From positions 1 to 40,365 of IMG/VR virus record IMGVR_UViG_3300013132_000096: a stretch of DNA of 40,365 bases. One strand, given 5' to 3'. Within the stretch, counting starts at the first letter, position 1; each line of letters begins with the position of its first letter. A program made the translations under genes and the position numbers. The notes under the pieces were generated by a model. That model saw only the letters and a list, made by a program, of their open reading frames with translations, ran no database searches and was not told where the DNA came from. Shown in pieces: positions 388 to 40,218 of the stretch. This DNA is from a virus.

Positions 388-1594
388 CCCTGTCCAATCA
401 TACATTCACAGCCGCGAACCTTTTGTTCAACCTGACTCTAACGTAGATTTTAGAGCCGCATATGACCAAATTGAGGTTATTCATCGTGCGGTAGAGATGA
501 TTGTCAGTGCTTGCGTTGAGATTCCTTTTTCAATTTCAGGCGAAGGTCCCGCAAAAAAGCTTAACAAGCTTTTAAATGACAGACCAAATCCCTTTGAAGA
601 TAGAGTACGACTGTTACGCCGTGCCTACTTTGACCTACTGTTAGACGGCAACGCCTTTTTCTACTATGACGGCACTCATCTCTATGTTCTTCCGGCAAAC
701 GACGTAGAGATTGTGACAGATCCGAAAACGTTTGTAAAAGGATACATCTTTTTAATTCACGGTGGTGGGTCTTCTAGTTATAGTGCTGTACGTCAAACTA
801 AGAAACAGGTTATTGAGTTTCGGGCCGACGAGATTATACATATTAAAGAGGATAACGATGAGAGTATTTTCCGTGGAAAGTCTCGTATTAAGAGCCTCTC
901 AAATATTATTAACATCTATAATGCACTACTAAAGTTTCAGCGTCAGTTCTTTAAAAATAATGCAGTACCCGGAGTAGTCCTTACTACCGAATCTGTACTG
1001 AATACTAAGATTAAAGAACGTCTATTGCAGAGCTGGCGTAATTCTTATGCCACTATCTTTGAAGGCGCTCGTAGTCCTGCTATTTTAGATGGCGGTTTAA
1101 AGATAGATAAGTTTAGCGATATTAACTTTCAGAATTTAGACTTTGAATCTAGTGTAGATAGGCTTGAACAAGATATGGCTAAGGCAATGGGTGTGCCTTA
1201 TGTCTTGATGAAGAGCGGTAATAACGCAAATATTGCAGCAAATCAGGTACTATTTTATGAACATACTGTTTTACCAATAGTTTTAATGTTTGCTAGCGCC
1301 TTTGCTCACTATTTTAACTCTGTACGTATTATTCCAGATAGAACAGTGATTACCGCTCTGCAACCAGATTTAAGAACTCAAAGTCAATACTATGTTAGTT
1401 TAGTTAACTCAGGAATCATTACTCCTGACGAAGCTCGAGCGAAACTAGGATTTAAAACACTAGATACTCCAGAAACTAATATAATTAGACTTCCCCAAAA
1501 CATAACAGGAAGTGCTGTGAATCCAGATGTAGGTGGTCGACCTTCTAACGAAAGTGTAGATGAATTACCTGCTGACAGCGTCCTACGAGAATGA
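341..1594 (+). CDS. Portal protein (HK97 gp3-like)
   Basis: A 417-residue protein of the HK97/SPP1-type portal family, the dodecameric ring at one capsid vertex through which DNA enters and leaves. Family-like features are the N-terminal segment with VIHRAVEMIVSA (about residue 46), the PNPFEDR...LLLDGNAFFYY region near residues 82-109, and a C-terminal part with KAMGVPYVLM followed by VLPI and the final crown region. Length is normal for the family. ATG at 341 is chosen because GGAG stands about 7 bases upstream. The gene lies inside the end of the HNH frame and directly before the capsid gene, the usual portal-protease-capsid order. Confidence 0.88.
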   Translation: MARGPIGWLADRLKLNPVQSYIHSREPFVQPDSNVDFRAAYDQIEVIHRAVEMIVSACVEIPFSISGEGPAKKLNKLLNDRPNPFEDRVRLLRRAYFDLLLDGNAFFYYDGTHLYVLPANDVEIVTDPKTFVKGYIFLIHGGGSSSYSAVRQTKKQVIEFRADEIIHIKEDNDESIFRGKSRIKSLSNIINIYNALLKFQRQFFKNNAVPGVVLTTESVLNTKIKERLLQSWRNSYATIFEGARSPAILDGGLKIDKFSDINFQNLDFESSVDRLEQDMAKAMGVPYVLMKSGNNANIAANQVLFYEHTVLPIVLMFASAFAHYFNSVRIIPDRTVITALQPDLRTQSQYYVSLVNSGIITPDEARAKLGFKTLDTPETNIIRLPQNITGSAVNPDVGGRPSNESVDELPADSVLRE

Positions 1595-1607
1595 GGAGCG
1601 AATAAAG

Positions 1608-13300: not shown

Positions 13301-16300
13301 CTTAAGACAGGTAGTCTTACTCTTGAGCAATATGAAATTGGCTTTGCAGCTATTGTATCAGCACAGACTATAGCTCGTCAAGAGTATTTTGCTACAGAAA
13401 AACTGATTAATAGTTTAACAGTAGAAGAAAGAGATCTTTTACTAGATAATGGAATTAACTTACAGGATATACTACAAACCGCAAAGGATACAGTTCTTGC
13501 ACAACAACAAATTACTGAACAACTTAAAAAACAAGAGCAAACTTTAAAAAATCAACTCACAATTTCTGAGTTTTTACGCTCATTCACAAAAGATAAAAAG
13601 AATCCTCTTGCTTTTGAGTTAGAGTTTATTACTGAGCGTGCTGAAAACGACCTGCAGTCTTTTGTAAATCAAGTAGATTATTTAAGTGGTTTTATTACTC
13701 AAATAAGTGCAAACTTAGGTGCCACTTTTGATAAGGAATTAGAAACATACAGAAAGAATGCGGCAGCCCTAAGAGAGATAGGGCTAGAGGCGGAGCTTGT
13801 CACTAGAATTCTGACAGAAGGCACTAATCTGAGTATGATAGAAGGTCCAGCCGGACGTGAGGCAATGGTAGCTAATACAGAACTAGCTAATTTGCAAGCC
13901 GCTGCAGAAAAATTAGGATCAACTATTGCTGTAACAGGTAGCGGCCTAGGCGTTGTTAGAGATAATATTGATAGTGCAGCTACGGCTAGCATAAATTTAC
14001 AAAGCCAGGCAACCATCACTCAACTAGCTTTATATGAGCAAGCTTTAGAAGCTATTCAAGGTTTAACGCAAGAAGCTGTTAACAACCTACCTAAGTTTAT
14101 AGGGGCTGCTGAACAAGAGTATAAAGCTATTATTAAAAAAATTGACGCTGACCTTAAAGAACTAGTTTCTAAAGAGCAAGTTCTTGCAATACAGTTTGAG
14201 ATTGATCAGAGAAACTTGAGACAACAAATTTCTGAGATACAGTCTGACGCTCGTATTGCTCGCTTTGAGTCTGAGATAGAAATTATTGAGGCTAGAGCTG
14301 ACTTAAAGCAACTTTCTCCAGTTAACGCAGCTAACCAAGTAGCTGCTATTGAGAGAAAAATTATTCAAGAACGTCAAGCAGCTTTACAAACTGCGTTTGA
14401 AGCTGAATTAAATAACATTGACGATAGAAAAACTATTCTAAAACTTGAGTCGGAAGCACGTAAACAAGCTATCAGAGATGAAGCTCAGGCACAGATTGAT
14501 AAAATTACGCAAGATGTAGCTTACGTTAGCACTATTGTTCAAGCCTATGATACTTTTATTAAAGATTCTGACAAAGTTAATATGAAATTGATTGATGATT
14601 TTGTCAATGCCGGTAATGCTGTAGCACAAAATTTTGCTACTACTTTTCAAAATGGTGCAACTGTTTTTGCTACGGCAATCAGACAAGCCCTAACCGGAAC
14701 GTTTTCTGGTCAAGCTGGGGCAGTAACTACTGCTCCTGCTTCTATTACAACTACCGCTATCTCTACTACTCTCAGAGATATAACTACTGATTTTATTATT
14801 TTAGCTGGAGAGACTACAAGCAAAATTATAGAAGGTGAAAAAGCTCGTATACAGGCTGAAACTACTGCAACTGAGCGTAGTCTAGAGTTAATACGTCTTG
14901 AACAAGACGTTGCTACTGCTAGATATGTAGCAGAATACGCTGCATTACTTCGTGCAGCCGAGCTAGGCGACCTTGTCGCCCAACAGCGTCTAAATGATAT
15001 TGCAGACGCTGCTAATGAAGAAGCTAAGGAACGTAGAGAAGCATTAGCTCAGTTTTTACAAGATTTTTCTAAAACCCTCTCCCAGGTATTTGACTTCGTC
15101 AATCAGCTTGTTACCGGCATCTTTGAAGGAAAGATTATTCAGGCTCGTCAAAATGAAGAGTTCATCACTAGTGTGCTCGCCAGCACTAGTGAGCGGCTTA
15201 GTGCTGCCCAAAGTGAGCTTAACTCTAGTTTAGAACTCGAAGTCTCACTTCGTGAGAAGCTTATTGACGCAACTAATACCCTATTAGAGAGCCAAAACTC
15301 CTACTTAGTCGCTCTAGGTCGTCAAAACGAAGAAATCGCGGCATCTGGTAAAGAGTATGTAGATAACTTACTAGCACAGAAACGCATTATTCTCGAACTT
15401 GCTGATGCCAATCGCAATAGTCTAGCACTAGGAAAACAGGTTACTTCTTTAGAAGAGATGCAAACCTCTCTACAACAAGCCCTAGCTGATGCTACAGAAT
15501 CTCGCATTAAGCTTGAGAATAAACTTGCTGCTACGCAAGAGATACTCGGCGCTGTTGCACAGGCAGTGACCGGGCAAATAAATATGCTTGCTGATAGTCT
15601 ACGTAACTTAGGTAATGCTGCTGGAGGCGGTGGGCCTGCTGGTGCTAAACCTACTGAAGTAAGTGTTACAAATCTTGGCAGTGTGTTCACTCCTCTAGCA
15701 AATACGCTAAAAACGGCGGTGACAGAGGCTGCCGCAGCAGCTTCTGGTAAGGCTGCAGTGGCGGAAGCTGCCGGTCAGACTGAAGAAGCTACAGAACTGC
15801 TAGCGGCTAGTGCTTTGTTAAACACCGCTTCTACTGTGATTAGTTCTGCTATGAGCGGATATAATCTTGGCAAAGCAATAGGTGTTGCTCTTGGCACAGA
15901 TGGGGTTGCTAGCGGAATTGGAGGCGCTATCGGAGGAATAGTGGGAACGGTCTTTAAGACTCAAATTGCAGGTTTCTTAGCCAGCACCACTATTGGTTCG
16001 GCTATTTCTACTGGAGTTACTACAGCATTAGGGGGTGGTGCTTTTGGTAGTGCAGCTGCCTCTGCTTTAGGTAGTGTGTTTACAGCAGCAATTCCAGTTT
16101 TTGGAGTTGTAATTGGTGCACTACTCGGCAACCTATTCGCCACTAAACCTCGCGGTCAGGCGACAGGCGTGCTAACTGCTGAGGGATTTGAAACTACCTC
16201 AATGTCAGGTAAAAAAATTGACCCAAAAGCACTCGCCTCTATTCCTGAGCAAGCACTAATGGGGGTAGTTACTTCTTTAAAACAGGCAGGAATTAGTTTT

Positions 16301-19300
16301 GCTGATACAGTAAAAACTGGAATTGATTTTTATAAAAAAGGTATTTCTAATGCTACTCTTGAATTTGCAGACGGGCTTAAAGAGACTTTTAGCGGGGGTA
16401 CAGTTCAGGAAGCTGGTCAATTCTTCGTAGACGCCTTTTTTAAAGGAGTACGAGTTGAACGAGATGAAGCAGGTCTTGTAACTTTTAGAAGTCTGGTAGT
16501 AGACGCTCTTACGCCTAATCGCGAGACTATTCAAAATGCTGCAGACCGTTTTGCTGAGCTTAGTGATGTAGCAGAAAAAACCGTAAAGCGTTTTGAAGAG
16601 GCAATTCAGTTTGCTACAGAATTTAATGATACTTTATCTAAATTACAAGGTCCGGCCACAAGCATTACACAAGCATTTAACTTAATAAATGCTGCCGCGC
16701 AACAAAATTCAATTGTGCTCGCTCAGTACTATAGAGAATTCTTAGCAGGTACCGAAAAAACATTTGGGGCTTCTTCTACTGAGTATGAAGCAGCCTTAGC
16801 AGCTGTTCAAGCCAATGCTCTTGCGCAACTAGGACTTGCTCGTGTTACCCGTAATGGAGTGACAGAGATTAAGTCATTAACTGAAGCACAGAGTGAGCTT
16901 AATGCTGGATTCTTACTGGTTACTGATATTATAGCCAAAGCTACTGCTTCTATCGATATGCTTACTGTAGCAGGATTTGATAACATCGGAACTATCATTG
17001 AGACTTCTATTAATACCCAGCTGACTGACGCTATTCAGACAACAGCGGAGTCCCTAGCTCAAACTCTTGAAGTACTTAAAAATCCAGCTAAAGCTGCTGT
17101 ATTTGAACTTGAAGGTATTCTAGATAATAGTGTACAGAGAATTTCTGACTTACGGGGTATTGTAGACGGAATTAATGATGCAATCCAAAAAGGTTTAGAA
17201 ATAGACCCTGCCTTACTCACACAAGCACGAAGCAACATTACTGCTGCAGCGGAACTAGTAGATATTGAACTAGATGCTTACATTCGTAGCCTGTCAGAAG
17301 CTCAACTAGAGGCTGTTATTTCTACTGATCAATTCTCAGATTCTATTAATAATTTAGCGCAAACTCAGCTAGAGTATCTTAGAGTCGTAGGTTCACAAAA
17401 AGCTGTTGCTTCTCTAATTAATACAGGGCGTCGTTTAAGTAAAACAATAGCCGATATTACAGGTCAGTTTAACTTATTTAGAGTAAACGGATTACTAGGT
17501 ATTGGAGTTGATATAGATACTCTAGCTAAAAACTTAGGTCAGACGGAAATAACCTCTTTTACTATTGAACTAAATGACGCACTAAATGAGATTGCTACAG
17601 GTGAGAATATCGCTAGTAATTTAAGCAGTTCGGTAGCTCTTCTAAATAGTGAATTTGATGCTGGTACTCTAACTGCTGAACAGTACGCATATGGTATAGA
17701 ACAAGTAATTACGACTACAGAGCAATATTTAGAAACTCTTACCGAACTGTCTAAAGAGTACCAATCTACTATCTCTCAAATCTCTGGAGCCTTTAATCAG
17801 TCAAAAGATACAGTTATAAGTACGATTCAGGAACTCGGCAGCCAGATTATTTCTCTCACAAATAATATCTCTAGTAAAACATCAGAGATACTAGGCATCT
17901 ATGATGATACTCTAGCTTCAGTAGCAGAATCTGGTAATGAGCTTTTTGATCTACGTGATACTGCTAAAGACGCTTTTGAAACTGCATCACGTGCTATAAA
18001 AGAATTTGAACGCAGCAATAAACTTAGTGGTAAATCTGTAGAAACTCTACGGAGAGAGCTTTCTTCTGTAGAAGCAGAAATTGCTTCTTTAATTTCTGCG
18101 GATAACTTAGATTTTAGTGGATTTTTACAACTCTCAGAACTTACTTCTAAACAAGGAGCGTTAAAAAGAGAGATTAGTTCAGTAGTGGCTATAGAGAGTG
18201 AGTATGAAGACTTATTAGGTACTCGAACTAAAGCGCTGGAGGACCTCTCTTTTGTAGAAGCAACGCTCGCAACTTTAGATGATAGTTTAGTAGATACTCG
18301 CCGTAAAGAGAGTGAAATTATTAAGAAGACACAAGACGCTACTACTAGTTTTATCTCTGCCCAAAATGATTTGCGAGATATTACTGCGCTATTAGCAGAG
18401 TCTAACTTTAATTTAAATCAAATTCGTTTTGATGAAGAATCAGCAGTAACCCGCGTAAAAGATGCCCTAGCTAGCTATAATAAAGATTTAGATAATTTAA
18501 CTTCTACTTTAGAAGCTATTGGTGGAGAATCTGGTGCCGCGCTGCAGAGTGCATTTATTAAGGCTGCTGCCGGGAACGCTGAAATTATTTTTGCTAACTT
18601 AGAAGAAGCTGCTCGTAACGCTAAAATTGGAGAAGCTACTGCTCAAGCCGTAGAAGCCTTTGACCAGCTACAAGCTCTTGCGCTACAAGTATCAGGTTTC
18701 TTTGAGCCTGTAGATGAAGCCTTTACAGGTCTAGAAACTGTGAGTGTTTCACTAACTGATAAGTTCCAACAGTTTAGTACAGACATTGTTAAGTACTTAG
18801 AAACAGAAGGTTTAGCTCAGTTTTATGGGCCCGGTGGAGTATTCTTCCAATTTAAAGAGACACTACTCGATACAATTAAGAATCAAGGCTTTGATGTCTT
18901 AACAGCTCCCGGCGGACCTCTACAGAATTTTAATACTAACCTAATGAATATTTCTCAGGCAATTGAAACACTCTCTAATGCTGGAAACTTCTTAGATATT
19001 ACTATTCAGACTGCGGAAACTACTTTTGGTAGTTTTGTGACTGCAGTCGGTACTGATTTAGAAAAGCTTACTGCTGGATACGTTGGACTCAGTATTGTTG
19101 GAGCTAACCTTAGTGATACAGCTCCCGATACTATAAGCCTCTATGCTGAAGGCATCGGCAACTTAAATGCGGTTTTAGATGAAGGTGGTAGCCTCAGTAT
19201 CCTATTAGACGCCGCAGAAGCAATGGACTCTCTCTATTCTTCTGTAACAATTGTAGATGCCCTCTTAAATGAGATTAATTTTGAGGTGTCAGCTCAAAAT

Positions 19301-22300
19301 GCGAAAGATAATATTGTTACTGCAGTAGAAATTGTAAATAGCACTATTGGCACTATTGATTTAGGCGTGTCTGCTAGTACAATGGTAGATAATATTACTA
19401 CAAATGTTGATTTGATTAATAGCACTATTTCTGCAGTTGACATCTCAGTCTCTGCTACTGCTATGAATGAAGCAATTACTTCTGCGGTCGGCACTATTGA
19501 TAGTACACTTACTGGAGTTGACCTTACTACTTCTACCTCTGCAATGGTTTCTGCTATTGATACTACCGTAACAACTCTTGATACTGCTCTTTCTGGCGTA
19601 GACCTCACTGACTCTACTTCAGCAATGGTTGCAGCTATCGATGCTAGCGTTGAAACACTCAATAGTACTCTTACAGGTGTAGACCTCACTCTGGGTACAG
19701 ATAGTGCGGTGGCAGCTATTACTACGTCAGCAGATACCGTAATTGAGACGTTATCTGGAGTTGACCTTACTCTTGGTACTGAGAGTGCTATTGCAGCTAT
19801 TACTACGTCAGCAGATACAGTAATTGAGACGTTATCTGGAGTTGACCTTACTAGTGGTACAGATAGTGCAGTAGCAGCTATTACCACGTCAGCAGAGACT
19901 GTGATTGCAACTCTATTGGGTGTAAACCTGACTACTGCTACCTCTAGTATGATAGACACTATCACTACTAACGTTACGCTACTAAATAGTACTATTGGTG
20001 AGGTAGATCTTACTACCTCTACCGCCGTTATGGTAGAAGCTATTAATACTACGGTTACGACTTTGAACTCTACGCTAGAAGGCCTCAGTCTAGGCACTGC
20101 GACAGACTCTGCAGTTGGTAAACTATCTGAAACTATTACTGCTATCAACTCTACTCTAAGTAATATTGCATTTTCTGATGCCGAAGATGTTGCGGTAGGT
20201 GCTATTACTAATACAATAGAGGCAATCAATAGCGTACTAGAACGTATTGACCTTACAGATGTCACTAATTCTGCTGTAGGTAAGATTGAAGTATCAATAT
20301 TAGCACTACAATCAGTACTTGACGGAATTGACCTTGTAGAAATTTCTGAGTCAACAGTTAATAAATTTAACGCTGTTGTAGAAGCTATTGTCTCTACTCT
20401 TAACACTATTGACCTCGTAGAAGTGACTAATTCTACCGTTTCTAAGCTCAAGGCCACTATTACCGCTATGGAGTCTACGCTCGCAAATATCGACCTTGTA
20501 GAAGTAACTGAGTCTACTGTAGAAAAGTTTGAGATAGCAGTTGTTGCTATTAAATCAACACTTGAAGATATTAGCTTAGTTTCAGTAACAGATTCGGCTA
20601 TTGGAGAATTTAATGCTCTAGCTATTGCAATTGAATCTACTCTTAGCAGTATTGATTTAACCTCTGTTACTGATTCTACAGTTGGTAAACTTACTACAGT
20701 AGTTTCTACTATTGATTCTACACTAGCAGATATTGATTTTGTAGAAGTAACTAATTCTACTGTTGATAAGATTAATACACTAGCAGAAACTACTAACTCC
20801 ACTCTGTTCGATGTATCTTTTGTAACGGCTACAGAGAGTGTTGTAGGTGAAATTAACTCTGTTAATGACCTTGTAAATTCTAATTTATCTGATGTGAGTT
20901 TTGTCTCTTCGCTTCAAAGTGCCGTTGACGAGATTAATCTTGTCAACAGCTCTGTTAATTCGACTCTAGAAAGAGTAGACTTTGTTACTACTCTCTCAAG
21001 TGCAGTAGATGAAATTTCACTTGTAAATACTAATATTAACTCAACTTTAAGCGAGGTTAGCTACTCTACTTCTCTAGATAGTGCTATTAACGAAATTACA
21101 CTAGTTAATACTAATATTAATTCTGCACTCTCCGAAGTAACTTATAGCACTAACTTAGATAGTGTTATTGGTGAAATTTCTGCTGTTAATGAAGATATTA
21201 ATAGCAGCCTCAGTGATGTTATTTTTGTTTCTTCACTCAGCAGTGCAGTAAGAGAGATTAATGCGGTAACAGGCACTCTTAATTCTACTCTAGACGACGT
21301 TGACTTTGTTGTCTCGACAGATTCGGTAGTAGAAAAAATTAATGCTTATAATACTGCCGTAAACTCTGCTCTGAGTAATGTGGCACTTGTAACAGCCACT
21401 GAAAGTGCAGTAGGCGAGATTAATGCTGTTAATACATCAGTAAATTCTACTCTAGAAAATGTAGATTTTGCGGTAGCACTAAACAGTGTAGTAGACGATA
21501 TAACGGCTATCTCTGTTGATTTAAACTCTGCTCTGGACAACGTAAATTTCGTTATTACGACTAATGCAGTGGTAGAAAAAGTAACTGCTTATAATGTAGC
21601 AGTTAATTCTGCACTTAGTAATATTACACTAGTCGATTCAACCAGTAGTGTAGTAGATAAAATTGAGGCTGTGCAAACGGCTATCAATTCCTCTCTAGAG
21701 GGAGTTACTCTAGTCTCGGCTACAGACTCAGCGGTTGGCACTATTTTAGCTGCTATTGAAGCAATAGACTCTACTCTAACAGACGTAACTCTAGTAGACG
21801 CCTCTGCCTCTACAGTTGAAGCTATTAAAGCTGCTATTTCTGCAATTGATTCTACTCTTAATGATGCAACGCTAGTTACTTCAACCGAAACAGTAACAGG
21901 TGCTATTACAGCTGTTATCTCTGCAATTAATTCTACTTTAAATGACGTAACTCTTGTAGAGGCTACTGCTTCTACTGTAGAAGAGATAAATGCAGCTATT
22001 ATAGCAATACAGTCTGTGCTAAACGGAGTTAACCTAGTTACTGCTACTAACTCGGCTACAGGTGCGATTACTACCTCTATTAATTCGATTAATACAACTC
22101 TAAACGGTATTGATCTAACCTCAGGAACTAACTCTGCTATCAAGGAGATTACAGACTATAATTCAGAAGTAAATACAGCACTTGGCAATGTCAGCCTATC
22201 CGCAGAAACTTCCAATGTAATTTCTGAAATTGCCAGTATTACGGGTATTAACGTAGAACTAGGTAAAATTTCTCTGAGTGTAAACCTCGCTAGTGCCAAA

Positions 22301-24445
22301 TCTAATATTAGCGCGGTTAATACTGATTTAAATGCCGTCTTAAAAGGCATTAGCATCTCTACAGATTTGGAAACTGCTAAATCTGCTATTGCAAAAGTTA
22401 ATACAGATTTAAACGCTAGACTAGCTGCAATCGCGGTTGAAACTAATCTCTCGCAAGCAAGAACTCGTATTGATACGGTTAACACAGATTTAAATGCTAG
22501 ACTTGCCGCTATAAACCTTGCAACTAACTTAAATCAGGCTACAACTAGAATTGATGGAGTGAGCACATCAATCAACACATCGCTAGGTAATGTTAATCTC
22601 TCTAATGCTACAGCAGTATTTGATGCACTAGTAGCAGTATTTACTCAATCAGCTACAGACAAAGTAACTGGGTTCAAGAATGCAATTGGAGCTTTTGCTA
22701 ATATTACGACAGAGATTACTAATACTCAAGAACTAGCTACTGAGATTGCTAACTTAGCAGGTACTACAGGAAGCGTTAAAAACCTTACCGACAGATTTTC
22801 TTCTCTGCAAACTACTATTAATTCTTTAACAGGAACTACAGGAATATCTGCATTACAAACTCAAATAAATAAGATTGCGACAGATCTACAAAATGCTTGG
22901 ACTGGATTAAGCGCCAAAAATATTTCAGTGACTGCTACTGTACCCTCTGGTACTACTATGAACCTCGGTACTAATGATACTACATACCTAAAAGGATTAT
23001 ATGATTATCGTAATCAATTCCCTGCTTTAGCTCCTGGAGGAGTCTCACTTAGATATAACAAAACAGCTTATGCGGAGGGTGGACTAGTAGACGGCCCAGG
23101 TACCTCTACTTCTGACTCTATTCCGGCTAGCCTTTCTAAAGGAGAGTATGTTCTTAAAGCTTCTAGTGTTCGTGCTTTAGGGCACGAGTTCTTAAATATA
23201 TTAAATCAGAGTGGTGATTTAGATTTTGCTATCTCTTCTCTTGGACGCAGAGGGGATGCTAGAGCCGCGCATATTACGCCAGAAGAGATGATGCTATTAA
23301 AAAGACTTGGCGGCAGTGGAACTAGAAACCCACGTACGGGTCTTAGAGAATTTTATAATAAAGATGGTGGAGCTCTTGGTCGATTTTTTGCTGAACAAGA
23401 AGCAGATCTACTATGGAATACTTATGGTCCTAAAATTGCCCAAGATGCTTATGCAGTACGAAGTTATTCAGTTAAAAATAATTTTGGGCATCCCGAAATG
23501 TATGAATTTACTGCTAAGCCATCTAATCCTTTTTCTTTAGTTAAGAAAGAAAGTGTAGATGTAAACCCAGTATCTCTATCACAGAACGCACTCTTTGATG
23601 CCGCAGAGATAAGCGGTCTTCAAAATTCTCAGGCAGCGGTTATGTTAGCCTTAAACGAAATGTTTGTAGCTAGAAAGGCTACTCCTGTTCAAGGTCTCCG
23701 GAGTAAATATGGACAAGATAAACGATATAGCCAATGGGATAGAACCCCAACTCGTTACTCCGATAGAAACTTTATTGATGCAAATTTTGGTAGTGGTTAT
23801 GCAGGAGTAGAGGGAAACTGGGCAGATAACCAAAATAAGATGAATCTTGGATATTGGCCAGATATCGGTTATCATCCAGGTTATAGAGCTTTTGGAGGTG
23901 GGGGTAATAAACACGGAGACATTTCTGCTGAAAATAGTGGATATCCGGCTAGATTTGCTCAGGCTATGACTAACTCTGTAGACAGACTCTTAGGAGACAC
24001 CAGTTCTTACATAAAAGGAACTTTAATGTCTAAAGATATTGTGAAGCAGGCTATTAACAAATTAAACTCGTCTAACGCATATAAAGACTTTGTTGATTTT
24101 TATATGTTAAGTGGTACTCGAGGTACTGCTCCTACTTATACTTCAGGCGGCTTAGTACGTGGTCAACGAGACTCAGAAATCTCTGCTCTTGAGCCTGGTG
24201 AATTTGTACTACGTAAGGCTGCGGTAAATCAGATGGGTCTAGATGCAGCCTATAAACTTAATGCTACTGGAGATACCGGTGGAGAGACTAACGTAGAGGT
24301 TAACATTACTAACAATGGTGCTCCAGTGAACGTCTCTGCTACCCCACAAATTCGTCGTGAAAACGGTAAACTTGTACTTGACATTATTCTTGAAGATATT
24401 AGAAACAACGGTCCTATCCGTCAACAAATTAGGAGTATTCGATAA
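10397..24445 (+). CDS. Giant tail tape measure protein (4682 residues)
   Basis: The tape measure sets tail length and is ejected with the DNA. The start is TTG, one base after the chaperone stop, with GAGAAG upstream; an in-frame TGA at 10385-10387 and the lack of a nearby ATG support it. The N-terminus is tape-measure-like (AQASGLGGLVAAYAGAAATTFALQ is typical in style). Hydrophobic, Gly-rich segments lie near residues 264-295, 517-540, 650-695 and 1839-1914 and may cross the host membrane. Long helical stretches fill residues 900-2950. Residues 2971-4076 are 41 tandem 27-residue repeats. The C-terminus carries two copies of the GGLV...LxxGEfVLr...A motif (about 4227 and 4583) separated by an unrecognised region of about 300 residues. 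At about 1.5 angstrom per residue the tail would be near 700 nm. Confidence 0.95.
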   Translation: MATIRNIITTIFNSLNADSTVRDANNVNRSITRLGQSSASAGRAFSAQASGLGGLVAAYAGAAATTFALQQAFDALARSARAAQTLEGLGSLAAVSGQSGKAILSSIQEITKGQITLTEAAQQANLSLSAGFNTQQIEGLAEVATKASRALGRDLNDAYIRVVRGSAKLETELLDELGIYTKIEPATRAYAAAIGKARTELTEYERRQAFANAVIEEGRRKFSAINTTIPTSAEQLEAFGSTVLNIATQIGSFVADRLAPLAAYLTNNVALAFAAVGIAASLVAGKAVTLLTAAFTSFNERVVKAGATTEKIIRAFTLTAAAANKANDSIKALTASQIKLTGTQATQLKGLIDASQSRKLNTLELKESRKLIGQNITALRAERDAFRANAQTAIDAQRAAVNARRAALAEQARARALPQGGGFGTPEFIARTTAINQANAALRRADRALASNAAAYAAASAQVQANSVAIGRNITALNALGPALTGVGARIAAVTAGFVALTTSAITGFGALFRGIVGIGSSILFLGSLFTLLGGAIANALGKGEEFNAFISDLGATVKQFFSNQQEAKAKKVFKGVTVGALAELEKTDAALRNTDKFTFKKKFLFFEVEVEKTKEDLVNEVNSIISDVATGSQRTFADSLVGRGGFIGGTIASFLPFLIGLVPGIGPAAAILGGTFARGFTVAAGAAIGAWIDSTLFADEFDQNSPVAQRIRAQFSRVLSGYDADVQNILVQGLTKLDERYAEAARLDPRARIVLRTQQELLLASGKYFKNIEAVSQLMEATGQTADLVVKQFDFAPVVSQIDYIQTAIASLQGKTLEFTFIDVNTLTNQLRESLVEAALSAEAKLLETLTNIRQGFGEDFYEPEQFKALQNATNLEILKTIEAAQVESARDSSKTILQVLQDSEDTLSKALGKLFSSVTIPILDIQKALAVLPTLEERILPAINASNTLNQALARVVFTQKNLNEGLKTGSLTLEQYEIGFAAIVSAQTIARQEYFATEKLINSLTVEERDLLLDNGINLQDILQTAKDTVLAQQQITEQLKKQEQTLKNQLTISEFLRSFTKDKKNPLAFELEFITERAENDLQSFVNQVDYLSGFITQISANLGATFDKELETYRKNAAALREIGLEAELVTRILTEGTNLSMIEGPAGREAMVANTELANLQAAAEKLGSTIAVTGSGLGVVRDNIDSAATASINLQSQATITQLALYEQALEAIQGLTQEAVNNLPKFIGAAEQEYKAIIKKIDADLKELVSKEQVLAIQFEIDQRNLRQQISEIQSDARIARFESEIEIIEARADLKQLSPVNAANQVAAIERKIIQERQAALQTAFEAELNNIDDRKTILKLESEARKQAIRDEAQAQIDKITQDVAYVSTIVQAYDTFIKDSDKVNMKLIDDFVNAGNAVAQNFATTFQNGATVFATAIRQALTGTFSGQAGAVTTAPASITTTAISTTLRDITTDFIILAGETTSKIIEGEKARIQAETTATERSLELIRLEQDVATARYVAEYAALLRAAELGDLVAQQRLNDIADAANEEAKERREALAQFLQDFSKTLSQVFDFVNQLVTGIFEGKIIQARQNEEFITSVLASTSERLSAAQSELNSSLELEVSLREKLIDATNTLLESQNSYLVALGRQNEEIAASGKEYVDNLLAQKRIILELADANRNSLALGKQVTSLEEMQTSLQQALADATESRIKLENKLAATQEILGAVAQAVTGQINMLADSLRNLGNAAGGGGPAGAKPTEVSVTNLGSVFTPLANTLKTAVTEAAAAASGKAAVAEAAGQTEEATELLAASALLNTASTVISSAMSGYNLGKAIGVALGTDGVASGIGGAIGGIVGTVFKTQIAGFLASTTIGSAISTGVTTALGGGAFGSAAASALGSVFTAAIPVFGVVIGALLGNLFATKPRGQATGVLTAEGFETTSMSGKKIDPKALASIPEQALMGVVTSLKQAGISFADTVKTGIDFYKKGISNATLEFADGLKETFSGGTVQEAGQFFVDAFFKGVRVERDEAGLVTFRSLVVDALTPNRETIQNAADRFAELSDVAEKTVKRFEEAIQFATEFNDTLSKLQGPATSITQAFNLINAAAQQNSIVLAQYYREFLAGTEKTFGASSTEYEAALAAVQANALAQLGLARVTRNGVTEIKSLTEAQSELNAGFLLVTDIIAKATASIDMLTVAGFDNIGTIIETSINTQLTDAIQTTAESLAQTLEVLKNPAKAAVFELEGILDNSVQRISDLRGIVDGINDAIQKGLEIDPALLTQARSNITAAAELVDIELDAYIRSLSEAQLEAVISTDQFSDSINNLAQTQLEYLRVVGSQKAVASLINTGRRLSKTIADITGQFNLFRVNGLLGIGVDIDTLAKNLGQTEITSFTIELNDALNEIATGENIASNLSSSVALLNSEFDAGTLTAEQYAYGIEQVITTTEQYLETLTELSKEYQSTISQISGAFNQSKDTVISTIQELGSQIISLTNNISSKTSEILGIYDDTLASVAESGNELFDLRDTAKDAFETASRAIKEFERSNKLSGKSVETLRRELSSVEAEIASLISADNLDFSGFLQLSELTSKQGALKREISSVVAIESEYEDLLGTRTKALEDLSFVEATLATLDDSLVDTRRKESEIIKKTQDATTSFISAQNDLRDITALLAESNFNLNQIRFDEESAVTRVKDALASYNKDLDNLTSTLEAIGGESGAALQSAFIKAAAGNAEIIFANLEEAARNAKIGEATAQAVEAFDQLQALALQVSGFFEPVDEAFTGLETVSVSLTDKFQQFSTDIVKYLETEGLAQFYGPGGVFFQFKETLLDTIKNQGFDVLTAPGGPLQNFNTNLMNISQAIETLSNAGNFLDITIQTAETTFGSFVTAVGTDLEKLTAGYVGLSIVGANLSDTAPDTISLYAEGIGNLNAVLDEGGSLSILLDAAEAMDSLYSSVTIVDALLNEINFEVSAQNAKDNIVTAVEIVNSTIGTIDLGVSASTMVDNITTNVDLINSTISAVDISVSATAMNEAITSAVGTIDSTLTGVDLTTSTSAMVSAIDTTVTTLDTALSGVDLTDSTSAMVAAIDASVETLNSTLTGVDLTLGTDSAVAAITTSADTVIETLSGVDLTLGTESAIAAITTSADTVIETLSGVDLTSGTDSAVAAITTSAETVIATLLGVNLTTATSSMIDTITTNVTLLNSTIGEVDLTTSTAVMVEAINTTVTTLNSTLEGLSLGTATDSAVGKLSETITAINSTLSNIAFSDAEDVAVGAITNTIEAINSVLERIDLTDVTNSAVGKIEVSILALQSVLDGIDLVEISESTVNKFNAVVEAIVSTLNTIDLVEVTNSTVSKLKATITAMESTLANIDLVEVTESTVEKFEIAVVAIKSTLEDISLVSVTDSAIGEFNALAIAIESTLSSIDLTSVTDSTVGKLTTVVSTIDSTLADIDFVEVTNSTVDKINTLAETTNSTLFDVSFVTATESVVGEINSVNDLVNSNLSDVSFVSSLQSAVDEINLVNSSVNSTLERVDFVTTLSSAVDEISLVNTNINSTLSEVSYSTSLDSAINEITLVNTNINSALSEVTYSTNLDSVIGEISAVNEDINSSLSDVIFVSSLSSAVREINAVTGTLNSTLDDVDFVVSTDSVVEKINAYNTAVNSALSNVALVTATESAVGEINAVNTSVNSTLENVDFAVALNSVVDDITAISVDLNSALDNVNFVITTNAVVEKVTAYNVAVNSALSNITLVDSTSSVVDKIEAVQTAINSSLEGVTLVSATDSAVGTILAAIEAIDSTLTDVTLVDASASTVEAIKAAISAIDSTLNDATLVTSTETVTGAITAVISAINSTLNDVTLVEATASTVEEINAAIIAIQSVLNGVNLVTATNSATGAITTSINSINTTLNGIDLTSGTNSAIKEITDYNSEVNTALGNVSLSAETSNVISEIASITGINVELGKISLSVNLASAKSNISAVNTDLNAVLKGISISTDLETAKSAIAKVNTDLNARLAAIAVETNLSQARTRIDTVNTDLNARLAAINLATNLNQATTRIDGVSTSINTSLGNVNLSNATAVFDALVAVFTQSATDKVTGFKNAIGAFANITTEITNTQELATEIANLAGTTGSVKNLTDRFSSLQTTINSLTGTTGISALQTQINKIATDLQNAWTGLSAKNISVTATVPSGTTMNLGTNDTTYLKGLYDYRNQFPALAPGGVSLRYNKTAYAEGGLVDGPGTSTSDSIPASLSKGEYVLKASSVRALGHEFLNILNQSGDLDFAISSLGRRGDARAAHITPEEMMLLKRLGGSGTRNPRTGLREFYNKDGGALGRFFAEQEADLLWNTYGPKIAQDAYAVRSYSVKNNFGHPEMYEFTAKPSNPFSLVKKESVDVNPVSLSQNALFDAAEISGLQNSQAAVMLALNEMFVARKATPVQGLRSKYGQDKRYSQWDRTPTRYSDRNFIDANFGSGYAGVEGNWADNQNKMNLGYWPDIGYHPGYRAFGGGGNKHGDISAENSGYPARFAQAMTNSVDRLLGDTSSYIKGTLMSKDIVKQAINKLNSSNAYKDFVDFYMLSGTRGTAPTYTSGGLVRGQRDSEISALEPGEFVLRKAAVNQMGLDAAYKLNATGDTGGETNVEVNITNNGAPVNVSATPQIRRENGKLVLDIILEDIRNNGPIRQQIRSIR
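19307..22624 (+). repeat. 41 tandem 81-bp (27-residue) repeats in the tape measure gene
   Basis: Each unit follows the pattern (small/acidic)-x-I-x-x-x-x-x-x-[IL]-N-S-T-L-x-x-[VI]-D-[LF]-x-x-x-T-x-S-A-V. All are 27 residues except one of 26 near the end (around 22220), so the array spans 1106 codons. A degenerate further copy precedes it. Units at 19712 and 19793 are almost identical in their first 60 bases, showing recent duplication; most others have diverged strongly. Confidence 0.93.
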
Positions 24446-33935: not shown

Positions 33936-34289
33936 TTAAATAGTCTCACTATCCGAGAAGAACCAACATTTATAGTAGTTTTCTAGTTCTCCATAGCTAC
34001 CGATATACTGCACTCCTCTAAAAATAGCCGGAGAGCGTCGGCAGTTATACTCTACTACTAGTTTGCGTTGCCAATCTGTATTTAAGAATACTAGCTTATA
34101 GGTTTCTTTACGGCTTTTTAGAAGCTCTACTGCTTTACTGGTCCAAGGACATCCTTGAAGACCAATCACCGTCCATACGGCTATATTATCTGTTTCTCGT
34201 AGCCTATTATCAGGAGTTTTAATACTTGCCTCTTTAGGCGCAGGTGTTGCTGAACTAGCAACAGTGCTTACGTTAGCTTTAGTGTCCAT
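33936..34289 (-). CDS. Glutaredoxin/thioredoxin-fold protein with single-Cys CPWT motif
   Basis: A 117-residue protein with a thioredoxin fold in residues about 38-107: IGLQGCPWTSKAVELL (active-site Cys 47), a SPAIF segment (86-90) in the place of the cis-proline loop, and YIGSYGELENYY as the last helix. The motif has Thr where dithiol glutaredoxins have the second Cys, so it would act, if at all, by a monothiol route. The first 35 residues are disordered-looking. ATG at 34289 with GAGGA 7 bases upstream is chosen over an in-frame GTG at 34301. It overlaps the end of thyX by 11 bases. Confidence 0.65.
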   Translation of the reverse strand: MDTKANVSTVASSATPAPKEASIKTPDNRLRETDNIAVWTVIGLQGCPWTSKAVELLKSRKETYKLVFLNTDWQRKLVVEYNCRRSPAIFRGVQYIGSYGELENYYKCWFFSDSETI

Positions 34290-34962
34290 TCGTTTCCTCA
34301 CTTATAAATTTCATTGATAGCGGAAATATTTCTGCAATAGCTCGAGCCACTTCTCGGGCTATTTCCATATGTTCCCGCTGAGTGCCGTTACCACTCCGTA
34401 GTTGGATATAGTGAATCCAAGAGCGAATAGTTCCTTGCATATAGAGTCGGGAAACGGTGTTTCCTTCTGGTAGTACACAACGAGCCTGTTCTTTAGCAAT
34501 ACCGTGTTCAAGAGCCCACTTATACGCTAGTTTAGCTTCATGGATGATTTGTTGCTGTTTTGCAGCCCACTGCAATTGCAATTCTACATCATCTGTTTTA
34601 ATAGAGTCTTGACGATTAGTAGGATGTTGTAGGCGAGCTTCTCGAATAACAAAACTTTCGTCTAGAACAGTTACATCCTGATAGCGTTGGCTAAATTCCT
34701 GAAACGAGAAGCTTCGATGTCGTAGTATCTGTCTAGCAATATCACGAGTAGTTTCAATCTCTAGAGTAGCACTGGCCATTTCAAAAGGACTCCAGTGCTG
34801 ATGCTTAATCAAATAATTGATTAGTCGCTCACTATTATCAAACTGCGTTTGAAACTGAGGATTTGAAACTTTAGCACAATAGGTAATAACGTCTTGTACA
34901 TCTTCTAACCCGAGAACTCTATTTTTAATCGGTTGTGTACAGGCAAAAAGTTTTACTTTCAT
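34279..34962 (-). CDS. thyX: FAD-dependent thymidylate synthase ThyX
   Basis: A 227-residue enzyme that makes dTMP from dUMP using methylene-tetrahydrofolate, FAD and NADPH. The family signature RHRxxSxxEFSQRY is complete at residues 81-94 (RHRSFSFQEFSQRY). The C-terminal part has the IHYIQLRSGNGTQREHMEIA region (about 184-203) that contributes to the dUMP and FAD sites. Length is normal. The start overlaps the 5' nuclease stop in ATGA, so the two are co-translated. Together with the ribonucleotide reductase it supplies phage DNA precursors. Confidence 0.95.
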   Translation of the reverse strand: MKVKLFACTQPIKNRVLGLEDVQDVITYCAKVSNPQFQTQFDNSERLINYLIKHQHWSPFEMASATLEIETTRDIARQILRHRSFSFQEFSQRYQDVTVLDESFVIREARLQHPTNRQDSIKTDDVELQLQWAAKQQQIIHEAKLAYKWALEHGIAKEQARCVLPEGNTVSRLYMQGTIRSWIHYIQLRSGNGTQREHMEIAREVARAIAEIFPLSMKFISEETNGH

Positions 34963-36384: not shown

Positions 36385-36615
36385 TTAGAGACTTTGCTCT
36401 AAGTAGTTTTTTAGTTCGGTATACCCGCCAATGTGACTATCTTCAAAAAAAATTTGTGGTACTGTTTTTGCTTCTGGAAAGCGTTTTAGTAGCTCAGTCT
36501 TAATTTCAGGATTAACTACATTCTTTACGACATATTGATAGTTGTGTTCGGTGAGTAAGGCTTTTGCCCGCTCACAGAACGGGCAAGAGTCTTTAGAGTA
36601 CATTACTAATGTCAT
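36385..36615 (-). CDS. grx: Glutaredoxin (dithiol CPFC)
   Basis: A 76-residue glutaredoxin with CPFC at residues 11-14, the TVPQIFF cis-proline loop (51-57) and GGYTEL (63-68), complete for the fold and of normal length. It would pass electrons to the ribonucleotide reductase encoded just upstream. ATG at 36615 is chosen because it starts the domain exactly and lies 1 base after the reductase stop, suggesting coupled translation; longer in-frame starts up to 36675 would add an irrelevant leader inside the reductase gene. Confidence 0.9.
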   Translation of the reverse strand: MTLVMYSKDSCPFCERAKALLTEHNYQYVVKNVVNPEIKTELLKRFPEAKTVPQIFFEDSHIGGYTELKNYLEQSL

Positions 36616-36616
36616 A

Positions 36617-37684
36617 TTAAATCGCGCAACCTTCATTAGAGCAAAACTTGTTACTCTCTGCGTTTTCGCCTTCATTAGTTAAGCTACTGAAGTCTAGCGG
36701 ATATAGTGAGTTTGCATAAGCTTGAACTTCTTCTCTGGGAGCTGCAATGTAAGGTGCTTGCACATATCCATGTTCAAAGTATGGTAGCAGCGATACTGAC
36801 TTAAGTTCACTGTCAAATGCGCTTAAACAGGCGGCAATCTGATTAACTTCATTTTTAGTGAAAGTTACTGTGACGGATACCGCGTTGTCACTCCAAACCT
36901 TTTGGAAATCCGAAACATCTTTAAATTGTTGCCAGATAGAAACATCAGACTTTTTCGGTAAGCTCTCATCTACTAAGACTGGAAAATATACTACTAGTGT
37001 TCTAGTCGGGTCTGTTGCCGCTGGTTCAATACGGTAGTTGGCATTTTTTAGAATGTCCATGATTGGCGAATTAGCTGCTAACCTAACAGTACGATAGTAT
37101 GAAGAAGATTCGGTATGGTGAATACCTGGAAGAGCTCCAGCTAGTAGAGAAACAGTTCCCGAAGGCTTTACTGTAGTTTTTCTAATAGAACGAGGAACAC
37201 CAAGCCAATCACTGTACTTTTTATCAATATACGTTAGATAGTCATAGGCTTGGTCCGCCCATGAGAGAAACTCTTTTCTGCCAAACTTAATAAAGGCTTC
37301 TTGAATACCACTCATAGAACAGCCGATTCGTCTATTACGACTAATAGCAGCATTTGTTTCTTGCCAGTTTGTAGCAAGAAGAGTAACTGCCTTTGAGTAC
37401 AGATAAGAGAATTTTAAAGTGCGTTGCAGATCCCAGTAATCTTTGTGATTAGCGGGATAGTTTTCATTTAGGTTGCACGTCTCATAACTAGATAATTGTA
37501 TTTCACCACAATTGGCTACTGGTATTAGTGAGTACTTTGGTTTTCCGGCAGCAGTTTTTCCTTCGTCTCCTATAACGCAGAAATTAAAATATGCAGGAAC
37601 TGTCATACAATATACGTCTTCTATACCGTCGAGTTCAATTGAGACTATTTTATGATTATAAGAAAATGATTCCGCAGCTAACAT
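36617..37684 (-). CDS. nrdJ: Class II ribonucleotide reductase NrdJ, intein C-part plus C-terminal extein
   Basis: This is the same reading frame as the N-part, after one TAA. Counting from the first ATG (37684), 58 residues are the end of the intein: NHKIVSIELDGIEDVYCMTVPAYFNF is block F-like, and the last residue is Asn before Cys. The C-extein begins at 37510 with CGEIQLSSYETCNL, holding the radical Cys, the Glu and the partner Cys, and runs 297 residues to FCSNEGC, the C-terminal redox pair. Joined to the 409-residue N-extein it gives 706 residues, near the usual 739 of the L. leichmannii enzyme. ATG at 37684 has no good ribosome site, and no NTG occurs between it and the stop, so independent translation is doubtful. 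Confidence 0.75.
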   Translation of the reverse strand: MLAAESFSYNHKIVSIELDGIEDVYCMTVPAYFNFCVIGDEGKTAAGKPKYSLIPVANCGEIQLSSYETCNLNENYPANHKDYWDLQRTLKFSYLYSKAVTLLATNWQETNAAISRNRRIGCSMSGIQEAFIKFGRKEFLSWADQAYDYLTYIDKKYSDWLGVPRSIRKTTVKPSGTVSLLAGALPGIHHTESSSYYRTVRLAANSPIMDILKNANYRIEPAATDPTRTLVVYFPVLVDESLPKKSDVSIWQQFKDVSDFQKVWSDNAVSVTVTFTKNEVNQIAACLSAFDSELKSVSLLPYFEHGYVQAPYIAAPREEVQAYANSLYPLDFSSLTNEGENAESNKFCSNEGCAI

Positions 37685-38953
37685 CTTTTGAGCTAGTGTT
37701 TGGTTATACGCACTGTTTTTAAGTTTATAAGCATTGAATAAATCTACTTCAAAACCTACTTCTTCTGCTAAAACTTTTAAAATATCTGATGGTTTAAATA
37801 TCCTAATACTATCACTCTTTATCCGGTAATCAAAACCTAAACCATTAGCAAAATCTTGAATCTCTTTACTATTAGGTATTTTTCGAGCGGTTACTATTTA
37901 CTTTTTTACTTCGTCTATTAATAACCCTATTTTTTGTTTAGCTTTAGCGTGCTTAGTTCTATTAGCAGAAATAGTTTGTAAAGCATATCCATTTTTTGCA
38001 TTACGTGTATTTATGTGCCTATCAGAAAAAGGCACAATAAATTCCTGCCCGTCAATAGCATCAATTTTTCTTACAAAATAAAGCTTTCCACTAGAAGTCC
38101 AGTTTGCTTCATTGCGCTCAATTACACTATTTATCTCATCTTCTGATATTACTATACGTTCACACGCATTATAACGTTCTTTCATAGCCTGAGATAATTT
38201 TAGCTTAACTTCTTGCTTTGCCATAGTGTTCTTTATAGCAACTAGCATTTTTTCTTTGTATTCAGTATTAGACCAACGTTCGGCGCTTTTAGCCCCAATA
38301 AGTTGTTTAGTGTCTTCTGAATGCTTTTTTCCAAACATGCCATTGGCAGTTCCAAATTTAGGTTTATGAAATTTTTCTTTCCACTCATCAGACATTCTAT
38401 GATATGGATTTTTATCTCCCATCATATCTTTACTGTGTAACATATCGTGGTCTGAAGCACTCATGACTACTAAGTTGTCAAAACTATTATTTAGTCCTGC
38501 ATAGTCTTTATGATGAACTACTTCAGTATTGTTAAGTTTTCTACCTTCAAAAAATTCAGCAAATAATCTATGTTCTGCTTTATTTTTATTGTTATTATCA
38601 GAATGAGACACCCACATATAATCTTGACTTTTTGATTTCATCTGAGCAACCCACTTACGTCTAGCCATTAGACTAGTACCAACAGTTAAATCTTTTAAGG
38701 CTTTGCGCTCTCCAGAGGGTAGATAGAACTCATGATTATCTGTAGCTCTAATACTAGTGCCATCATCTAAAGTAACTTTATACAACTGTTTGTTATACCC
38801 TGTAACCCTCGGATGTTGGGCAAGGCTGACAGTAGTTTGTCCTAAATCATTTACACAATATACAGGTACATCTTTACCTTCTTCAGCTAGTTGTTTAATA
38901 GTTACAGCATTTCTGCCGTCTGCTACAGCTATTAAAGTATCCCCAGACACACA
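37511..38953 (-). mobile_element. Intein with HNH homing endonuclease, interrupted by one stop codon
   Basis: 481 codons between the reductase residues NP and CGE. Splicing features: Cys 1 in CVSGDTLI (block A), TDNHEF at 71-76 (block B, Thr and His present), block F with NFCV, and a terminal Asn followed by Cys +1. The penultimate residue is Ala rather than the usual His. Residues about 125-230 carry an HNH endonuclease (VVHHKDYAGLNNSFDNL ... SDHDMLH) and a NUMOD3-like DNA-binding motif (GMFGKKHSEDTK, 205-216). Codon 352 is TAA. The insertion splits the enzyme at its active-site Cys, a favoured intein position in reductases. Confidence 0.88.
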
Positions 38954-40180
38954 AGGATTTAACCCTTTAACACTAGTATCATCGTTTTTAATACCGTCTT
39001 TTAGTCTTCCATAACTTCTAGAGGTATCAAGCCAGAAAAATCCAGGCTCTCCATTTTGTGCAATTGAAGCTACATAAGGCGCATAATCCATTCCAGCTTT
39101 AGCATATAGAGAGTTATTGCTAGCCCATAGCCAACCACCAAATTTCCAGCTCCAAATTTCTGAGGCATACTTTTTAGCTATGAGACTTTTGTCATCCCAA
39201 CTTGTTTCAAAACTATTATATGCATCATAATCTTGCTTATTTGCAGCTTCTAATTCTGGAGGAGCTTGCATACCCATACCAACAGGGCTTTTGTCCCAAT
39301 TTTTTAGAGTCACATAATCTAAGTCATTCGGATTACCAAGCGCGATTAATGCGCTTCTGCGCACATTACCTGCTACGACTATTTTGCCAATAATGCCCAT
39401 AATACTGACAATATCAGTAGATGTTAATAACTGACCGACTCTATTCTCTAGTACTTCTTTAATACCGTTAAAACCTTGTACGAGTGGCTCAGGACCAGAA
39501 GCTACCCCTCCAAATCCTTTAATTTCCGTTCCATAAGGTCTAACCTTACTAACATCATAGGTAATAGGGCTACTACCTTCTTCTAGATAGGAATCAATTA
39601 GGCAAGAAATAAGTTCTACCCACCCCTCTCTAGTATCGTCTACTACTACAAGCTCTGGTTCTCCTGATGGTTTTTGCACAATAACTTTTTCTGCTCCATC
39701 AGTATCATACCCACAACCTACTCCCTGCATCATTGTATCCATTACAAATGCAAAAGGCTTAGATAGTTCAGCGTCAATGTCTTCAGTAGATACGAACGCG
39801 CAATTATAAAGAGCCATAGCTCCTTTTTCCCACAGGTAATCTGTGCCCATCATCCAGAGTCCGCGGCCTGGCGGAGTCCATTTAAATTCAAACAAACGCT
39901 CGGCAGCTTCTTCTGCTAGACGATGTGCTCGTTTTTCATCCCAAGGTAGATGCGAAGTAATAGCATGTGTTTTAAGAATGGAAAACATTCCCTCAATAAC
40001 ACGAATTACGCATTCAGCCCAGGTCTCTAGAGTACCATTCTCTTTGCGTCTTGCATAGGTACGATAGTAAGTAAACTCACTTAATCCACCATATCCCCAG
40101 TGTACAGATTTTGCTCCTAGTAAGTCTTTAAATTCTTTTCTTAATTGAAATTTAATAGGTTTTTTACCTATAGTTAGCAT
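37898..40180 (-). CDS. nrdJ: Class II ribonucleotide reductase NrdJ, N-terminal part plus intein N-part
   Basis: A 760-residue open frame. Residues 1-409 are the N-terminal extein of an adenosylcobalamin-dependent ribonucleoside-triphosphate reductase of the Lactobacillus leichmannii type: the YYRTYARR...ETWAECVIRVIEG block (38-64), LYNC with the redox Cys 127, the VMQGVGCGYD-like stretch, and VAGNVRRSA. It breaks off at GLNP, just before the thiyl-radical Cys. Cys 410 is residue 1 of an intein (CVSGDTLI). ATG at 40180 has AAGGAG 7 bases upstream; an in-frame TTG at 40222 is rejected. The frame ends at a single TAA (37898-37900), after which the same frame stays open to the end of the reductase. 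Confidence 0.85.
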   Translation of the reverse strand: MLTIGKKPIKFQLRKEFKDLLGAKSVHWGYGGLSEFTYYRTYARRKENGTLETWAECVIRVIEGMFSILKTHAITSHLPWDEKRAHRLAEEAAERLFEFKWTPPGRGLWMMGTDYLWEKGAMALYNCAFVSTEDIDAELSKPFAFVMDTMMQGVGCGYDTDGAEKVIVQKPSGEPELVVVDDTREGWVELISCLIDSYLEEGSSPITYDVSKVRPYGTEIKGFGGVASGPEPLVQGFNGIKEVLENRVGQLLTSTDIVSIMGIIGKIVVAGNVRRSALIALGNPNDLDYVTLKNWDKSPVGMGMQAPPELEAANKQDYDAYNSFETSWDDKSLIAKKYASEIWSWKFGGWLWASNNSLYAKAGMDYAPYVASIAQNGEPGFFWLDTSRSYGRLKDGIKNDDTSVKGLNPCVSGDTLIAVADGRNAVTIKQLAEEGKDVPVYCVNDLGQTTVSLAQHPRVTGYNKQLYKVTLDDGTSIRATDNHEFYLPSGERKALKDLTVGTSLMARRKWVAQMKSKSQDYMWVSHSDNNNKNKAEHRLFAEFFEGRKLNNTEVVHHKDYAGLNNSFDNLVVMSASDHDMLHSKDMMGDKNPYHRMSDEWKEKFHKPKFGTANGMFGKKHSEDTKQLIGAKSAERWSNTEYKEKMLVAIKNTMAKQEVKLKLSQAMKERYNACERIVISEDEINSVIERNEANWTSSGKLYFVRKIDAIDGQEFIVPFSDRHINTRNAKNGYALQTISANRTKHAKAKQKIGLLIDEVKK

Positions 40181-40218
40181 ACTTTTTCTCCTTACGCATA
40201 AAGTAACTATTGTTCTTC

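What the first reader, a model, noticed from the sequence alone, without database searches (positions are those of the whole stretch)
37511..38953. Ribonucleotide reductase intein open from end to end except for one UAA
The frame from the N-extein through HNH endonuclease, block F and C-extein is continuous, with a single TAA at 37898-37900. Splice residues (Cys 1, Thr-His of block B, terminal Asn, Cys +1) are kept and the extein keeps all five catalytic or redox cysteines expected in this family. The 71 codons between the stop and the next ATG look coding, with no further stop and no start codon. Explanations are: a recent nonsense change, stop-codon readthrough, a sequencing substitution, or a newly split, trans-splicing intein. 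An essential reductase that depended on a dead frame would be surprising, so one of the rescue routes may be real.
Basis: partly seen in the sequence, partly recalled or inferred. Interest (0 to 1): 0.9.

Follow-up and report, generated by a model that had tools for sequence, protein, structure and literature searches.

The report
Intein-bearing phage reductase gene broken by stop
A phage copy of a DNA-building enzyme gene, apparently swapped in from a distant phage together with a self-splicing insert, is cut short by one stop codon that no examined relative shares and for which no rescue route was found, so it is most simply a recent break or a sequence error.

Summary
On the minus strand, 36617-40180 reads as a class II (B12-dependent) ribonucleotide reductase with a 481-codon HNH intein (37511-38953) directly before the catalytic thiyl cysteine, and one in-frame TAA at 37898-37900. 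The rescue routes are not supported: none of 80 same-family RNR inteins readable to their end has a stop inside; the only downstream start (ATG 37684) has no ribosome site; TAA ends 19 of 25 window genes; the window has no tRNA gene; the RNA after the stop is unstructured; either single frameshift meets a stop within nine codons. Exteins on both sides of the stop are as conserved as in intact homologues, so the break is recent or a sequence error. New context: 14 close relatives (neighbouring genes up to 94% identical) carry an intein-free nrdJ here, only 60-67% identical to this one, so the gene was apparently replaced by a foreign, intein-bearing allele. One reader claim needs correcting: block F, N..D/E..H in 80 of 80 relatives, is C..P..F here and there is no penultimate His, so splicing competence is unproven even with readthrough. 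Suppression by a tRNA outside the window cannot be excluded.

The parts
38954..40180 (-). N-extein of class II ribonucleotide reductase (NrdJ), 409 codons, ATG at 40180 preceded by AAGGAG
   Evidence: RNR_Alpha, RNR-II_ins_dom; SD -9.2 kcal/mol; TIGR02505 RTPR
37511..38953 (-). HNH intein, 481 codons including the stop
38640..38953 (-). N-terminal splicing region, blocks A and B (Cys1, T71-x-x-H74)
   Evidence: residues 1-104, pLDDT mostly above 90; TIGR01445
38297..38572 (-). HNH_3 (residues 128-170) and NUMOD3 (185-219) of the homing endonuclease
37898..37900 (-). the single in-frame TAA, intein codon 352
37685..37897 (-). 71 coding-like codons with no ATG/GTG/TTG start after the stop
37511..37684 (-). 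C-terminal splicing region, blocks F and G (VYCMTVPAYFNF ... PVAN), beginning at an ATG without a ribosome site
36620..37510 (-). C-extein of NrdJ, 297 codons, starting at the catalytic thiyl Cys (Cys408 of 1l1l)
36600..40215 (-). replaced tract: nrdJ is 48-78% identical in DNA to the nearest phage L112, against mostly 78-91% on both sides

Best explanation
This is an imported nrdJ allele carrying a conventional HNH intein at the active-site cysteine, and it has acquired one recent nonsense codon inside the endonuclease part of the intein. As sequenced, translation ends at intein codon 352. The product is a 760-residue N-extein/half-intein that lacks blocks F and G and the C-extein, so no spliced reductase is made from this molecule. 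Shown: the frame, the stop, the foreign allele, the absence of the stop in relatives, and the lack of decay downstream. Inferred: that the product is inactive; that the phage gets by on the host's reductase or that sister genomes in the population carry an intact allele; that homing with co-conversion brought the allele in.
For: None of 80 readable family inteins (72 distinct sequences) has a stop inside. Exteins depart from otherwise invariant columns no more than intact homologues do (N 1/47, C 2/49); dN to the nearest reductase L207 is no higher after the stop than before (0.19 against 0.22). ATG 37684 has no ribosome site (+1.3 kcal/mol against -9.2 for the gene's own start). TAA ends 19/25 window genes; no tRNA in the window. 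No RNA structure after the stop (z 0.22). Single frameshifts both hit stops. nrdJ is 60-67% identical to 14 close relatives whose neighbouring genes are up to 94% identical, all intein-free. No other gene of the window is visibly broken in about 13,000 codons, which speaks for a low error rate. About 5% of single substitutions in this gene give a stop.
Against: No reads, so a sequencing or assembly error is not excluded. All 14 close relatives keep an intact nrdJ, so loss is unexpected for this group. No copy of this very intein was found elsewhere, so conservation within the species is untested; the tools may withhold near-identical records.
Confidence: 0.58

Rival explanations
1. Sequencing or assembly error: the phage has a sense codon here and the stop is not real.
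For: One isolated substitution-type lesion in an otherwise intact 1,200-codon gene with no sign of decay. A lone TAG in an unrelated family member, L043, shows that lone stops do appear in such contigs.
Against: No other broken gene in about 13,000 codons of the window; substitution errors in a consensus are rare.
Confidence: 0.27
2. Ochre suppression or readthrough: a tRNA from the missing part of the phage genome or from the host reads the UAA, giving some full-length precursor that then splices.
For: Exteins and the rest of the frame are intact. Two relatives carry a tRNA with a CUA anticodon in a tRNA cluster, and a TAA-suppressor tRNA has been reported in a crAss-like phage (PMC7886860).
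Against: CUA reads UAG, not UAA. TAA is the main terminator in the window (19/25) and in relatives. No tRNA in the window; no RNA signal. It is the only such TAA in about 290 kb of related DNA.
Confidence: 0.08
3. Newly split, trans-splicing intein: N-half ends at the stop and the C-half starts at ATG 37684, between the endonuclease and block F, where natural split inteins break.
For: The ATG lies 58 codons before the splice point, leaving blocks F and G whole; natural split inteins break between blocks B and F (PMC4031507).
Against: No ribosome site at that ATG and no other usable start within 71 codons. The 71 codons between are still coding-like, which a split would leave untranslated. No split member among the family loci seen.
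Confidence: 0.04
4. Not exclusive with the above: the intein had already lost splicing through its aberrant block F, and the stop fell into a dead gene.
For: Block F N, D/E and H, kept in 80/80 relatives, are C, P and F here; no penultimate His; zinc-finger cysteines lost.
Against: Exteins are not decayed. VYCMTVP block F occurs in open-frame phage inteins (L002, L104, L105, L106, L110), three of which (L105, L106, L110), and L002, also lack both histidines. Eight other long family members also lack the zinc finger. F:4 is commonly Cys in inteins (PMC4031507).
Confidence: 0.15

Closest known systems
HNH inteins at the N-P|C-G-E site of viral and archaeal/bacterial ribonucleotide reductases (loci L011, L014-L100; block A motif ADGRxxVPIKQLAEEGKDVPV)
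   Same: Same insertion point, same block A and B, HNH_3/NUMOD3 endonuclease, same C-terminal layout without penultimate His
   Different: All others readable to their end have an unbroken intein frame and block F N..D/E..H; the window has a stop and C..P..F, and no zinc finger
Same-site LAGLIDADG intein of L207 (IMGVR_UViG_3300003177_000010)
   Same: Closest reductase (exteins 72% and 78%), same insertion point, same flanks VKGLNP|C.EI
   Different: Different endonuclease, canonical block F and G (...AHN), frame intact
Natural split inteins of phage RNR genes (NrdJ-1 and relatives; Dassa et al. 2009, cited in PMC3653736)
   Same: Class II RNR host gene, break would lie between blocks B and F
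   Different: Those have two expressed genes; here no start or ribosome site for the C-half
Genes-in-pieces RNRs (Aeromonas phage Aeh1 nrdA; Thermus phage phiYS40 nrdJ-a/nrdJ-b; PMC2988022, PMC3653736)
   Same: A phage reductase encoded by two open frames
   Different: Those pieces are separately translated and assemble; here the break is one codon inside an intein
Degenerating intein-interrupted nrdA of Listeria phages A511/P100 and Campylobacter phages (PMC3653736)
   Same: Phage reductase gene apparently disabled at an intein
   Different: Here the frame is otherwise whole, so the break is far younger
Stop-codon reassignment in crAss-like phages, including intein-bearing TerL (PMC7886860)
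   Same: In-frame stop within an intein-bearing phage gene
   Different: There many TAG or TGA codons and suppressor tRNAs; here a single TAA while TAA is the normal terminator

Membership tests
Class II ribonucleotide reductase (RTPR type) | Sequence family | tested here: met
   TIGR02505 matched by both exteins (200 and 131 bits, each below the 340-bit cut-off set for a whole protein), Pfam RNR_Alpha and RNR-II_ins_dom, 1l1l at 5e-41
Class II ribonucleotide reductase (RTPR type) | Catalytic N-P-C-x-E with thiyl Cys, partner Cys pair and C-terminal Cys pair | tested here: met
   C+1 aligns with Cys408 of 1l1l and ETC with GEPC 419; YNC and CSNEGC seen in the translation
Class 1 intein | Cys/Ser at position 1, block B T-x-x-H, terminal Asn, Cys/Ser/Thr +1 | tested here: met
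   C1, T71/H74, N481 (VAN), C+1
Class 1 intein | Assisting residues in block F (F:13 His) or penultimate His | tested here: not met
   F456 where 80/80 relatives have His; penultimate Ala. Less conserved positions, so not disqualifying on their own (PMC4031507)
Class 1 intein | One open frame from N- to C-splice junction | tested here: not met
   TAA at codon 352
Class 3 intein | No Cys/Ser/Thr at position 1 and a Cys at F:4 as branch point | tested here: not met
   Cys1 is present; Cys at F:4 alone does not define the class
Natural split intein | C-half has its own start and ribosome site | tested here: not met
   ATG 37684, aSD pairing +1.3 kcal/mol; 71 codons from the stop
Natural split intein | Break conserved in relatives | tested here: not met
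   0 of 80 readable family members broken; no close copy of this intein available
Natural split intein | Trans-splicing activity | not testable with these tools
   needs expression
Stop-codon reassignment / programmed readthrough | Same stop codon recurs in other genes or is rare as terminator | tested here: not met
   19/25 genes end in TAA; only one in-frame case
Stop-codon reassignment / programmed readthrough | Matching suppressor tRNA | tested here: inconclusive
   none in the window, CUA only in two relatives; rest of the genome missing

The most novel reading that the evidence does not exclude
The UAA is a working feature: low, regulated readthrough (for example by an ochre-suppressor tRNA outside the window), or an incipient split with a weakly initiated C-half, makes the reductase conditional, in an intein that has also switched block F to a Cys-F:4 type.
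Probability: 0.07. Interest if true: 0.75.

Novelty: new member of a known kind. Interest (0 to 1): 0.28.

Why it matters
If ordinary, it is a clear case of the intein life cycle in phages: an nrdJ whose neighbours are 93-94% identical to the nearest phage has been replaced by a foreign allele bearing a homing intein at the catalytic cysteine, and that allele is already broken in one sequenced genome. If the stop were functional it would be, to my knowledge, the first natural stop codon that gates an intein.

Tried and rejected
Recoding of TAA (TAA ends 19/25 genes). Frameshift at the A AAA AAG run before the stop (-1 frame stops after nine codons, +1 after one). RNA signal after the stop (z 0.22; no Rfam match in the window). 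Extein decay (not seen). Stop as a chance feature of non-coding DNA. The empty search for the intein in 34 related records had no positive control, but 13 of the 14 close relatives hold both exteins whole and the other holds the junction, and all join directly. An idea that the stop sits in a three-codon insertion was dropped: the alignment does not show it. Relatives of a virus record could not be drawn by the genome search.

Full report
What was checked. The window is a 40,365-base virus record, probably part of a larger phage genome (a relative contig is 75.9 kb). On the minus strand from ATG 40180 lies a class II ribonucleotide reductase gene, preceded by a strong ribosome site (-9.2 kcal/mol). 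It is interrupted by an intein at 37511-38953 that reads in one frame except for TAA at 37898-37900, codon 352 of 481. Exteins of 409 and 297 codons add up to 706. The stretch after the stop is coding by codon statistics and by absence of stops, and is recognisably the intein's C-terminal part: the Pfam intein-splicing match rises from 35 to 51 bits on reading through, and it aligns with intact relatives.

What the intein is. It belongs to a family that an alignment search found in 80 IMG/VR loci (97 were confirmed; the tool keeps 80) and, by a search of GTDB genomes, in seven bacterial or archaeal contigs, mostly MAGs; nearly all sit in reductase genes between N-P and the catalytic cysteine. 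The C+1 residue aligns with Cys408 of the solved RTPR 1l1l, so splicing must restore the catalytic site exactly. Among 80 other members readable to their end (72 distinct sequences) none has a stop inside the intein. One unrelated member, L043, has a lone TAG five codons into its C-extein, which gives a feel for how often lone stops appear in such contigs.

Departures from the family. In all 80 others block F has N at F:4, then D (74) or E (6), then H (F:13); the window has C, P and F. No family member has a penultimate His, so the block F His probably carries that role (inference; assisting residues are summarised in PMC4031507), and the window lacks both. The loss may not be fatal: VYCMTVP block F occurs in phage inteins with open frames that I read as large-terminase inteins (L002, L104, L105, L106, L110), several of which also lack both histidines. 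The zinc-finger cysteines of the endonuclease region are gone too, as in eight other long members. AlphaFold puts the splicing fold (residues 1-104 and 433-481) at high confidence, and the stop near the end of a modestly predicted helix in the endonuclease part; Foldseek matches DnaB, RecA, DnaE and NrdJ-1 inteins. In that model the stop was read as lysine only to allow the fold search.

Where the gene came from. Fourteen IMG/VR contigs (some near-identical to each other) share the neighbouring genes (exonuclease 67-94%, PDDEXK nuclease 70-93%, ThyX up to 93% identical). All carry nrdJ at the same place without an intein. Their reductases are 80-100% identical to one another but only 60-67% identical to the window's, about equally far from all of them. 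DNA identity to the nearest, L112, is mostly 78-91% outside the gene and 48-78% within it, lowest around the intein and in the C-extein. The nearest reductase is L207 (72% and 78%), which shares the window's flanks (VKGLNP|C.EI, against VRGGNP|CLEQ in close relatives) and has a different intein, with a LAGLIDADG endonuclease, at the same site. The window's nrdJ was therefore most likely brought in by recombination from an L207-like lineage in which this site is an intein target. Homing with co-conversion of flanks, known for phage introns (PMC2988022), is the obvious mechanism but is inferred.

Age and effect of the stop. N- and C-exteins depart from otherwise invariant columns at the rate of intact homologues (1/47 and 2/49), and dN to L207 is no higher after the stop than before it (0.19 against 0.22; dS is saturated, so no date can be given). 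The stop is therefore recent or not real. As sequenced it ends translation before blocks F and G, so no spliced reductase can form without rescue.

Rescue routes. Split intein: the first start is 71 codons on, without a ribosome site, and the codons between are still coding-like. Readthrough or suppression: TAA ends 19 of 25 genes, no tRNA lies in the window, and there is no RNA structure. Two relatives have a tRNA with a CUA anticodon, which reads UAG only, but the rest of this genome is missing, so suppression cannot be closed. Frameshift: both other frames stop at once or within nine codons. In about 290 kb of related phage DNA including the window this is the only pair of long open stretches in one frame divided by TAA with no start soon after.

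Verdict. A real observation with an ordinary best explanation: a recently broken (or mis-sequenced) copy of an imported, intein-bearing nrdJ. The main new content is the allele replacement and the aberrant block F.

Noticed in passing
L002 371-1240; L003 3963-4830: A phage large-terminase-like intein whose own frame runs unbroken from Cys1 to the C-extein while an HNH endonuclease frame is nested inside it in a different reading frame.
   Followed up: partly
L043 7138-7140: A lone in-frame TAG five codons into the C-extein of an unrelated RNR with the same intein family; homology continues in frame after it.
   Followed up: partly
L207 7219-8307: A LAGLIDADG intein at exactly the site used by the window's HNH intein, in the closest known reductase: different inteins share one site.
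   Followed up: partly
L239 19608-19682; L241 18230-18304 (reverse): Related phages carry a tRNA with a CUA (amber) anticodon in a cluster of about ten tRNAs, although TAG still ends several of their genes.
   Followed up: partly
window 10397-24445: A 4,682-codon tape-measure-like gene with long runs of repeated segments of about 20-25 residues near its C-terminal half, a third of the window.
   Followed up: no
window 1560-4151: One 863-codon frame that looks like a prohead protease fused to a major capsid protein (read by eye).
   Followed up: no
window 33936-34301: The thioredoxin-like gene is also more diverged from L112 (67% amino acids, DNA identity down to 63%) than its neighbours (93%), a possible second exchange.
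   Followed up: no
L010 2054-7531; L227 5111-11155; L052 2326-6675: NrdJ genes interrupted at two or more places, probably several inteins per gene.
   Followed up: no
window 37900-37907: The run A AAA AAG lies in slippery phase directly before the stop; as shown, a -1 shift leads to a stop after nine codons.
   Followed up: yes
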